From Spongiibacteraceae bacterium (GTDB taxonomy: Bacteria; Pseudomonadota; Gammaproteobacteria; Pseudomonadales; Dasaniaceae), in assembly GCA_030621845.1 (NCBI GenBank), contig JAUXHA010000018.1, positions 1 to 35,479 of the forward strand: a stretch of DNA of 35,479 bases, written 5' to 3'. The notes beneath the pieces are model-generated. The model saw only the letters and a program-made list of their open reading frames with translations. It was not told the DNA's origin and did not search any database. This document shows, piece after piece, positions 1-5,802 of the stretch (positions are counted from its first letter, which is position 1; each line of letters opens with the position of its first letter). Made by a program: the position numbers and the translations under genes.

Positions 1-202
1 GTACCATTGCTGCATGCTCTTTTTCCTCGTCTCTATTATGAGCAAGGATTGCTTTCAATTCTCCGTCTTTGCAGGCATCTACTCGTTGATTGTACCAATC
101 TACTGCTTCAAGCTCTTCCATAAGTGATGTAATAGCTCTGTGCATATCTCTTGTTTCGTTTGTAAGCTCTTCTATAGGCTCGTGATAACCTTCATTTGAC
201 AT
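1..202 (-). CDS. Encapsulated ferritin (EncFtn), N-terminal 67 residues, truncated by window edge
   Basis: The minus-strand frame opens with ATG at 202-200 and runs off the left edge. It is preceded by TAGGA about 7 bases upstream. The 67 visible residues match the encapsulin-associated ferritin-like family (Rhodospirillum rubrum EncFtn type): an N-terminal HEPIEEL segment, a first helix with MEELEAVDWYNQR and a second with LAHNRDEEKEHAAM. By alignment from memory, the ferroxidase ligands correspond to E30, E32, E60 and H63, with W36 and Y37 at the conserved aromatic sites. Family proteins are about 95-140 residues, form annular decamers inside encapsulin shells, and oxidise Fe(II) for mineral storage. 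A shell-targeting tail would lie at the unseen C-terminus. The encapsulin gene usually follows directly, here beyond base 1. Three of the four arginine codons are AGA and the fragment looks AT-richer than sohB, which could mean transfer, but the sample is small. Confidence 0.9.
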   Translation of the reverse strand, partial: MSNEGYHEPIEELTNETRDMHRAITSLMEELEAVDWYNQRVDACKDGELKAILAHNRDEEKEHAAMV

Positions 203-435
203 ATTTTTTCCTAAATAGTTGGATTGATCGATTATGCATAATGCCTTTATCAGGCGCAGCGTTGTAGTGTAGCCGATAGGCGAAACGGAAAAGCTGTCGC
301 CTGCCTAAAATTGTTATGTATTGACCTCGTTCACCCACTGCTCAAACTCTAGTGATTGTAACTGTTCGGCTGTATAAGTATTGCTAGATATAAATCCCAT
401 TGTATTTCAACATCAGTAAGTATCGGCATCATCGA
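203..435. other. Intergenic region between EncFtn and sohB: palindrome, hairpin and split small frames
   Basis: No convincing gene fills these 233 bases. They hold a perfect 12-bp palindrome at 231-242 (ATTATGCATAAT), 28 bases upstream of the EncFtn start. A 6-bp inverted repeat pairs AGGCGA at 278-283 with TCGCCT at 297-302. Two overlapping minus-strand reading frames of 28 and 27 residues lie at 314-400 and 349-432. The palindrome is a candidate operator for the EncFtn promoter; the short frames may be a decayed gene. Confidence 0.5.
231..242. promoter_or_regulatory. Perfect palindrome upstream of EncFtn, candidate operator
   Basis: The 12 bases read ATTATGCATAAT on both strands and lie 28 bases upstream of the EncFtn start codon, where a promoter or operator would sit. 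It does not resemble the Fur, IscR or OxyR consensus as I know them. Operator function is an inference from position and symmetry only. Confidence 0.35.
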
Positions 436-1485
436 CTACGCTTTATAATTATCCCTGCCCTGAACCTTGTTCCAGATCTTATCAAACACAGTCACCAGCG
501 CTGACTCCGCCGCAAAACCGATTTTTTCCATGAAGTTTTTCTTGTGAGTAAATGAAATAGAATAGATATCTGCTTCTTTGCGCTGCGCCATTAAGTATTC
601 GTCACTGGTGAGAATCTCGTCGATAAGGTTTTTATCCAGTGCCCGTAGTCCATACCAGATTTCCCCGGTAGCCACTTCAGTAATGTTGACCTGGGGCCGG
701 TGTTCAGAGACAAAACTTTTGAACAGCTGGTGGGTATCTTCGAGCTCTTCGGTGAACTTCTCCCTGCCCTTGTCGGTGTTTTCACCAAACATGGTCACTG
801 TGCGCTTGTGCTCACCGGCAGTAAATAGCTCGAAATCAATGTCGTTTTTCTTTAATAGGCGATGAAAATTAGGCAATTGGGCAAGCACGCCAATGGAACC
901 AATAATAGCAAAAGGTGCGGCGAGAATTTTGTTGCCGATACAAGCCATCATATAACCGCCGCTGGCAGCCACCGCATCTACCGCAACGGTCAACGGAATG
1001 TCCTGATTGCGCAAGCGCTGCAGCTGTGAGGCAGCAAGACCATAGGAATGCACCATACCGCCAGGGCTCTCAAGGCGAATGACAACTTCATCGCTGCTTT
1101 CGACCATGGTCAGTATGGCGGTGATCTCCTCGCGCAGTGAGGTCACTGCAGACGCTTTCATATCGCCATTGAAATCGAGCACATAGACACGCTTCTTGCG
1201 GGCTTCGTCCGCTGATTTATGTTTCTTCTTTTTCTTCTCCAGCTTGTCTTTTTTCTTCTGTTCTTTGTGTAGTTGCTTGAGTTGGTATTCATCGAGGATA
1301 ACGGATTTCAGGGTGTCCTCCATATCCTCATAGCGGTCATTGAGTATCTCAACCTCTATATGCCCTTCGTGTTCTTTTCGGCCGCGACTGCTGGCGGCGA
1401 TGATTGTCAGCACGACAATAATAATCGCCACTACGATGGTCATGGATTTGGCCAAAAAAAGCCCGTAACTACTGAGAAATTCCAA
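436..1485 (-). CDS. sohB: SohB-type inner-membrane S49 peptidase
   Basis: A 349-residue protein of the SppA/SohB family, close to the usual length for SohB (about 350). One membrane segment at about 10-31 anchors it in the inner membrane. A lysine-rich charged linker (about 65-99, with a run of KKKDKLEKKKKKHK) precedes the peptidase core. The Ser-Lys dyad is visible: S175 in AVAASGGYMM is the nucleophile and K227 in FTAGEHKRTV the general base, with the family spacing of 52 residues. The oxyanion-loop segment LESPGGMVHSYG also fits. The start is TTG at 1485-1483, supported by GGGG nine bases upstream, with no better in-frame ATG. Members degrade signal peptides or membrane-protein fragments in the periplasm; the specific substrate is not known. 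The gene lies downstream of the 221-residue membrane-protein gene after a 96-bp gap that contains a palindrome. Confidence 0.92.
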   Translation of the reverse strand: MEFLSSYGLFLAKSMTIVVAIIIVVLTIIAASSRGRKEHEGHIEVEILNDRYEDMEDTLKSVILDEYQLKQLHKEQKKKDKLEKKKKKHKSADEARKKRVYVLDFNGDMKASAVTSLREEITAILTMVESSDEVVIRLESPGGMVHSYGLAASQLQRLRNQDIPLTVAVDAVAASGGYMMACIGNKILAAPFAIIGSIGVLAQLPNFHRLLKKNDIDFELFTAGEHKRTVTMFGENTDKGREKFTEELEDTHQLFKSFVSEHRPQVNITEVATGEIWYGLRALDKNLIDEILTSDEYLMAQRKEADIYSISFTHKKNFMEKIGFAAESALVTVFDKIWNKVQGRDNYKA

Positions 1486-4296: not shown

Positions 4297-5802
4297 ATGG
4301 CCCGGAGCTTATCGGAAGGCTTAATACAAAATTTTTTAGGCCCCGCCCCACGCTGGTATAAATTAACGATTCTGGCCTTTTTGGTAATAAACCCCCTGTT
4401 ATTACTGCTCGCCGGGCCTTTTATTACCGGCTGGGTGCTCATTCTGCAATTTATCTTTACCCTGGCCATGGCCTTAAAGTGTTATCCCTTGCAACCGGGT
4501 GGTTTGCTGGCCATAGAAGCCATTGTTATAGGAATGGCCTCCGCCGAATCGGTTTATGCCGAAGCCTATAATAATTTCCAGGTCATTTTGTTGCTGGTGT
4601 TTATGGTAGCCGGCATCTATTTTATGAAGGACTTGCTGCTGTTTCTGTTCACGCGGATACTGCTAGGGGTTCGCTCTAAAAAACTCCTCTCGCTACTTTT
4701 TTCACTGCTTGCTGCCTTCCTCAGCGCCTTTCTTGACGCACTTACCGTTACCGCAGTGCTAATTACCATCGGTACCGGCTTTTTTGCTGTCTACCATAAA
4801 GTTGCCTCCGGCAAGAAAATACAAACGCATAATCACGATCACAGCAGTGATCGCGAGGTGATTGAGTTCCATCGTGACGACCTGGAAAATTTCAGGGCTT
4901 TTCTGCGCAGCCTGTTGATGCACGGTGCAGTAGGCACAGCGCTGGGTGGCGTTTGCACGCTGGTGGGTGAGCCGCAAAACCTGTTAATTGCCGAAAAAGC
5001 CGGCTGGGATTTTATCCAGTTTTTTACCTTGATGATGCCCGTCACCATGCCAGTGCTCGCCGGTGGTTTGATTACTTGCCTGTTACTGGAAATAACCGGC
5101 AGCTTTGGTTATGGCACCCTGCTACCTGCTAATGTGCGCACAGTATTGGAAGAGTATTCGCAAGAACTGGATGACAACCGCCATCCGGGTGAAAAAGCCA
5201 AGCTTCTTGTGCAGGCCCTTGTTGCCCTGTTTCTGATTGTCGGCCTGGCAACCCATCTTGCCGAAGTGGGTATTATTGGCCTTGCGGTGATTGTACTGCT
5301 TACCGCGTTTAATGGCATCATCGAAGAGCACCAGATTGGCCGCGCCTTTGAAGAGGCACTGCCGTTCACTGCCCTGCTGGTAGTCTTTTTTGCCATTGTG
5401 GCGGTAATACATGAGCAGCACTTATTTACACCGATTATCTCTGCCGTACTGGCTATGGATGCGGAGATCAGGCCGACAATGTTCTTTATTGCCAACGGTG
5501 TGCTGTCGATGATTAGCGATAATGTTTTCGTCGCCACTGTTTATATCAACGAGGTTAAAGATGCGTTGGATATGGGCGAAATAAGCCGTCAGGAATTCGA
5601 TAAGCTGGCAATCGCCATCAACACCGGGACCAACATTCCCAGTGTTGCCACGCCGAACGGTCAGGCCGCGTTCCTGTTCTTATTGACCTCGGCACTGGCA
5701 CCGCTGATTCGCTTATCTTATGGCAAAATGGTTATTATGGCATTTCCCTATACCATTGTTATGGGCAGCATTGGTATCTTATCAATTCACTATTTATTGT
5801 AA
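4297..5802 (+). CDS. nhaB: Na+/H+ antiporter NhaB
   Basis: A 501-residue polytopic inner-membrane protein nearly collinear with E. coli NhaB (513 residues). It exchanges cytoplasmic Na+ (and Li+) for external protons, giving salt tolerance and pH control. Conserved blocks include WYKL near residue 20, LAMALKCYP, the [12 protein letters not shown] helix carrying D147 (same position as the Na+-binding Asp of the E. coli protein), [17 protein letters not shown], and the C-terminal [21 protein letters not shown] hydrophilic loop at about 165-195 contains a histidine cluster (HNHDH) that could be a pH- or metal-sensing insertion. The ATG at 4297 is preceded by TTAGGAG with good spacing. The 3' end overlaps convergent dnaQ by 9 bp. 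Confidence 0.97.

What the first reader, a model, noticed from the sequence alone, without database searches (positions are those of the whole stretch)
1..202. Encapsulin cargo ferritin at the window edge: a probable iron-storage nanocompartment locus
The 67 visible residues carry the EncFtn signature (MEELEAVDWY and NRDEEKEHAAM, with putative ligands E30, E32, E60, H63). EncFtn works only inside an encapsulin shell, and the shell gene typically follows the cargo gene. The frame is cut by the edge, and the neighbouring sohB-fimL genes are ordinary, so this could be the end of an inserted encapsulin island. Encapsulin ferritin systems are little studied in gammaproteobacteria of this kind.
Basis: partly seen in the sequence, partly recalled or inferred. 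Interest (0 to 1): 0.7.

Follow-up and report, generated by a model that had tools for sequence, protein, structure and literature searches.

The report
Shell-less encapsulin-type ferritin (s-FLP)
The gene cut by the window edge makes a small iron-oxidising protein related to those that work inside encapsulin shells, but it is the short version that lacks the docking tag, and neither its genome as assembled nor any of 293 genomes of its order has a detectable gene of the classical shell, so it very probably works without one.

Summary
The 67-residue reading frame at window 2-202 (minus strand) is a real EncFtn-type ferritin-like protein with every ferroxidase residue in place. The "nanocompartment locus" reading fails. 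The window is a whole contig of a draft genome that has no Linocin_M18 (family 1) encapsulin. In its order, 37 of 293 genomes carry an EncFtn-like gene over cut-off and 0 of 293 carry an encapsulin. The nearest complete relative (66 of 67 residues identical) is a 95-aa protein ending LFTDKPIAHK, with no targeting peptide, matching PDB 3k6c (Nitrosomonas NE0167). That is the known "short" class, s-FLP. Across 106 complete proteins the contrast is clear: 49 of 49 with a GSLK/GSLR tail lie in encapsulin genomes, against 3 of 57 without, and those 3 are not next to a shell gene. No encapsulin lies within 6 kb of 80 named relatives, and no neighbour is conserved. A 2024 review left open whether s-FLPs are encapsulated and listed LFTDKPIAHE as a putative targeting peptide. 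These results argue against both. Best reading: a free ferroxidase ring in the cytosol, probably for Fe(II) detoxification; the sink for its iron is unknown. Cys44 and His94 mark the short form, a lead for experiment.

The parts
2..202 (-). N-terminal 67 codons of a short EncFtn-like (s-FLP) ferritin gene, cut by the contig end; about 28 further codons are expected
   Evidence: PF22277 at 111 bits; 66 of 67 residues identical to a complete 95-aa protein in same-family genome G001; full-length match of that protein to 3k6c
113..115 (-). Glu30, ferroxidase ligand (R. rubrum E32)
   Evidence: alignment with 5da5; roles from PMC5012862; 100% conserved
92..94 (-). Tyr37, beside the ferroxidase centre (R. 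rubrum Y39)
14..25 (-). Glu60-Lys-Glu-His63, the ExxH ferroxidase motif (R. rubrum E62, H65)
71..73 (-). Cys44, present in 99% of short forms and 2% of targeting-peptide forms
203..435 (.). Intergenic stretch upstream of the gene (towards sohB); no Fur-box-like site found

Best explanation
A stand-alone short EncFtn-type ferroxidase (s-FLP, NE0167 type). Subunits of two long helices pair to build a di-iron centre (E30, E60, H63 from each subunit; Y37 near by) and assemble into an open ring of ten, as the homologue 3k6c does. Fe(II) is bound at the entry carboxylates, oxidised at the paired sites and released as Fe(III). With no targeting peptide and no shell gene, the ring acts free in the cytosol, most likely to lower free Fe(II) under iron or peroxide stress rather than to store a mineral. 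Shown here: family, intact active site, short length in the nearest relatives, no tag in them, and no family 1 shell gene in the draft genome or its order. Known for homologues, not tested here: ring assembly and ferroxidase activity. Inferred: cytosolic detoxification role. Unknown: where the oxidised iron goes.
For: Family and active site. Short form: the nearest relatives are 92-106 aa, mostly 95, with the end LFTDKPIAH. No shell: PF04454 absent from the own genome and from all 293 genomes of the order, where 37 carry an EncFtn-like gene over cut-off. Positive control: in the order of G417, 51 of 76 genomes carry encapsulin, and the EncFtn there ends in GSLR/GSLK. Tail against shell gene in the genome: 49/49 versus 3/57 (Fisher p 5e-27, inflated by relatedness). 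Exceptions: G671 has a tailed copy at the shell locus and a separate short copy; in G339 and G355 the shell gene is far from the EncFtn gene or on another contig. G711, inside the tailed clade, lacks both tail and shell gene. No encapsulin in the flanks of 80 named short-form loci. No conserved neighbour. Purifying selection.
Against: The window's own C-terminus is not in the assembly, so its tail is inferred from relatives 94-99% identical over the first 67 residues. G000 is 84% complete, so absence in this one genome is weak without the order-wide result. The tail-shell association rests on few independent changes (3 on the tree; 2 independent pairs on well-supported branches). Encapsulins of other families were not properly tested (one search had no working positive control). 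EncFtn without a shell is said to be unable to keep a mineral soluble (PMC7762939), so a benefit without a shell needs another sink.
Confidence: 0.85

Rival explanations
1. Cargo of an encapsulin encoded just beyond the contig edge or in the missing part of the genome.
For: EncFtn family membership; the NCBIfam model is named encapsulin-associated; the frame is cut at the contig end and G000 is 84% complete.
Against: 0 of 293 genomes in the order have PF04454 although 37 have EncFtn-like over cut-off, 30 EncFtn-positive genomes being at least 90% complete. The nearest relatives lack the tail, and no shell gene lies near 80 named relatives.
Confidence: 0.03
2. Loaded into some other, unrecognised shell through the conserved end LFTDKPIAH, the putative targeting peptide of PMC11202242.
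For: The end is conserved (F87 100%, I92 92%, H94 96%); the review lists it as putative.
Against: Genomes that carry it lack family 1 encapsulin. The LFTxxPI part is also present in tailed forms, upstream of their real GSLR tag, so it looks like part of the core domain. No conserved neighbour that could be a shell.
Confidence: 0.06
3. Obligate partner of a classical ferritin: s-FLP oxidises iron and hands it to bacterioferritin.
For: The own genome encodes a bacterioferritin (260 bits to TIGR00754), and 30 of 36 tested short-form genomes have a PF00210 ferritin.
Against: 29 of 32 genomes without s-FLP also have one, so there is no association. Four short-form genomes at least 96% complete have none detected (G013, G025, G167, G224). 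Bfr is not adjacent.
Confidence: 0.1

Closest known systems
NE0167 of Nitrosomonas europaea (PDB 3k6c), type member of the short class s-FLP in PMC11202242
   Same: Full-length match of the G001 relative to 3k6c, 95 aligned residues of 95, same length, same end LFTxKPIAH, same ferroxidase residues.
   Different: Nothing of substance; the window copy is incomplete at the contig edge.
EncFtn of Rhodospirillum rubrum (5da5) and Haliangium ochraceum (5n5f, 7oe2), class FLP-TP
   Same: Core domain and ferroxidase residues.
   Different: They carry a 25-40 aa tail ending in GSLK/GSLR and a shell gene; the short forms do not, and they carry Cys44 and His94 instead.
Myxococcus xanthus EncB and EncC
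   Same: Distant matches in the helical core.
   Different: Much weaker similarity; tagged cargo of EncA (literature, PMC11202242).

Membership tests
EncFtn-like (PF22277) | Pfam profile match over cut-off | tested here: met
   111.4 bits against cut-off 27 on the 67-aa fragment
EncFtn-like (PF22277) | Ferroxidase residues E, Y and ExxH | tested here: met
   E30, Y37, E60, H63 aligned to 5da5
s-FLP (NE0167 class, PMC11202242) | About 95 aa, no long C-terminal tail, no targeting peptide | tested here: inconclusive
   Met in the nearest complete relatives; the window's own end is not assembled
s-FLP (NE0167 class, PMC11202242) | Decameric ring | not testable with these tools
   Known for 3k6c from PMC11202242; not tested for this protein
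Encapsulin cargo ferritin (FLP-TP) | C-terminal targeting peptide (GSLK/GSLR type) | tested here: not met
   Absent in the nearest complete relatives; own end unseen
Encapsulin cargo ferritin (FLP-TP) | Family 1 encapsulin gene (PF04454) in the genome, usually adjacent | tested here: not met
   0 in own draft genome, 0 of 293 in the order, 0 in flanks of 80 named relatives
Encapsulin cargo ferritin (any shell) | Encapsulin of family 2 (PF19307) | tested here: inconclusive
   No match in 9 genomes, but the control genomes did not ring either

The most novel reading that the evidence does not exclude
Short EncFtn proteins are a widespread, shell-independent ferroxidase lineage in Pseudomonadota, distinct in function from encapsulin cargo. 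Form-specific Cys44 and His94 may supply a second metal or redox site, or a partner contact, that replaces the shell.
Probability: 0.4. Interest if true: 0.5.

Novelty: new member of a known kind. Interest (0 to 1): 0.33.

Why it matters
Databases label these proteins encapsulin-associated, and a 2024 review left open whether the short class is encapsulated at all (PMC11202242). The order-wide absence of family 1 shell genes says most short forms are not, so the name misleads, and the question of what an open ferroxidase ring does without a container becomes directly testable. The window gene itself is an ordinary member.

Tried and rejected
Encapsulin island: rejected. Conserved operon partner: none in 84 loci; the 118-aa membrane protein 3' of the gene in G001 has no NCBIfam match and did not emerge as a conserved neighbour. 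Fur-box upstream: best-match scores barely above shuffled, window copy 11 of 19. De novo upstream motif: nothing convincing. Phage or viral carriage: no match in phage records or viral contigs; only 7 plasmid records. Rest of the gene elsewhere in the assembly: not found, inconclusive, no positive control for so short a query. The encapsulin profile was spoiled by EncFtn frames and is disregarded; it was rebuilt. No structure prediction was run because 3k6c matches the relative end to end.

Full report
What is there. The minus-strand frame at 2-202 opens with ATG at 202 and runs off the contig after 67 codons. It matches EncFtn-like PF22277 at 111 bits, falls short of the whole-protein cut-off of NCBIfam TIGR04535 probably only because it is cut (100 of 125 bits; the complete relative passes with 140), and hits PDB 3k6c best. 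E30, E60 and H63 are the ferroxidase ligands by alignment to R. rubrum EncFtn, Y37 the neighbouring tyrosine, E29/E32 the entry site and H55/E59/E62 the putative exit site (roles from PMC5012862; alignment).

What lies beyond the edge. The window is the whole of contig 31 of a draft genome of 176 contigs, 84% complete, so it cannot be extended. A search for the last 37 residues found nothing, which is inconclusive. Relatives supply the rest. G001, in the same family, shares 66 of 67 residues, and its gene is complete: 95 aa, ending DYLFTDKPIAHK. Its 21 nucleotide differences over 201 bases change 20 codons, 19 of them silently. Its flanks share nothing with the window at the DNA level outside the gene and its first bases upstream, and no sohB match lies near it, so the gene is not in the same place in the two genomes. 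In G002, another genome of the same family, the matching stretch contains a stop codon and is partial, so it looks decayed there.

Is there a shell? PF04454 (Linocin_M18, family 1 encapsulin) is absent from the own genome. In 293 genomes of the order it is absent from all, while EncFtn-like occurs in 38 (37 over cut-off; 30 of the 38 in genomes at least 90% complete and at most 5% contaminated). The search works: the controls rang, 6 of 398 genomes of the phylum score over cut-off, and 51 of 76 genomes in the order of G417 do.

A natural comparison. I took the EncFtn proteins of these genomes that are complete at the C-terminus and asked whether they end in a GSLK/GSLR-type targeting peptide. 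All 49 that do (118-137 aa) are in genomes with encapsulin; of 57 that do not (92-106 aa), 54 are in genomes without. The three exceptions fit: G671 has a tailed copy beside an encapsulin fragment on contig 15 and a short copy on contig 56; in G355 the two genes lie about 2 Mb apart, and in G339 they are on different contigs. G711, inside the tailed clade, lacks both tail and encapsulin. The p-value (5e-27) overstates the case, because the tree needs only 3 changes of the tail and gives 2 independent pairs on well-supported branches. The set was also not drawn at random: the order of G417 was chosen because it holds encapsulins, and the tail pattern was written after seeing tails.

Wider relatives. 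The 80 best loci from named genomes are short forms where read, 93-101 aa (L048 was not read there), from gamma-, beta-, alpha- and zetaproteobacterial records and single records labelled Myxococcales and Acidobacteria, many of them metagenome bins. None has an encapsulin in the sequence held, up to 6 kb each side. Apart from the gene itself, no neighbouring gene family recurs in more than 6 of 84 loci. It is a lone gene.

Literature. PMC11202242 names the class s-FLP, says it was first classed as non-encapsulated for want of a targeting peptide (citing Giessen and Silver 2017), calls the matter unclear because 3k6c forms decamers, and lists LFTD(E/N)KPIAHE as a putative, uncharacterised targeting peptide. 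The present data oppose that: the sequence is kept in genomes with no family 1 encapsulin, and LFTxxPI also stands in tailed proteins ahead of their true tag.

How it may work. The ferroxidase machinery is complete, so Fe(II) oxidation by a free ring is the simplest reading, and detoxification the likeliest purpose. PMC7762939 states that EncFtn cannot keep mineral cores soluble without a shell, so oxidised iron must go elsewhere. Bacterioferritin is present in the own genome, but an obligate link is not supported: ferritins occur in 30 of 36 genomes with s-FLP and 29 of 32 without, and four near-complete s-FLP genomes have none detected. Cys44 (99% in short forms, 2% in tailed) and His94 (96% against 14%) distinguish the form; the tailed set is mostly one bacterial order, so this may partly be ancestry. 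Their role is unknown.

Verdict. Observation confirmed; nanocompartment reading not supported; an ordinary member of a known but unexplained class, with comparative evidence that bears on an open question about it.

Noticed in passing
L168 (G671:C56) and L258 (G671:C15): One genome holds both a short EncFtn and a tailed EncFtn beside an encapsulin fragment: a ready-made comparison of the two forms in one cell.
   Followed up: partly
L230 (G711:C939): EncFtn nested in the tailed clade has lost its targeting peptide, and no encapsulin was found in that genome: an apparent joint loss of tag and shell. The genome is in about 950 contigs, so assembly gaps are possible.
   Followed up: partly
L146-L149 (G355, G339, G403, G543; genus g217): A divergent 104-aa EncFtn-like group without tail; two of the four genomes carry an encapsulin at a distant place. 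Proteins at 44-45% identity to the short form sit on Bradyrhizobium and Rhodopseudomonas plasmids, annotated as hypothetical.
   Followed up: no
L003/L124 and L012/L125 (G013:C24 and C14): Two short EncFtn copies in one genome in which no classical ferritin (PF00210) was detected.
   Followed up: no
L128 (G002:C9) and G204:C23:56742-56990: EncFtn-like stretches with internal stop codons, apparently decayed copies, in genomes of the same order.
   Followed up: no
window 436-1485 (-) and 4297-5802 (+): Ordinary neighbours: a SohB-type S49 peptidase and an NhaB Na+/H+ antiporter.
   Followed up: yes
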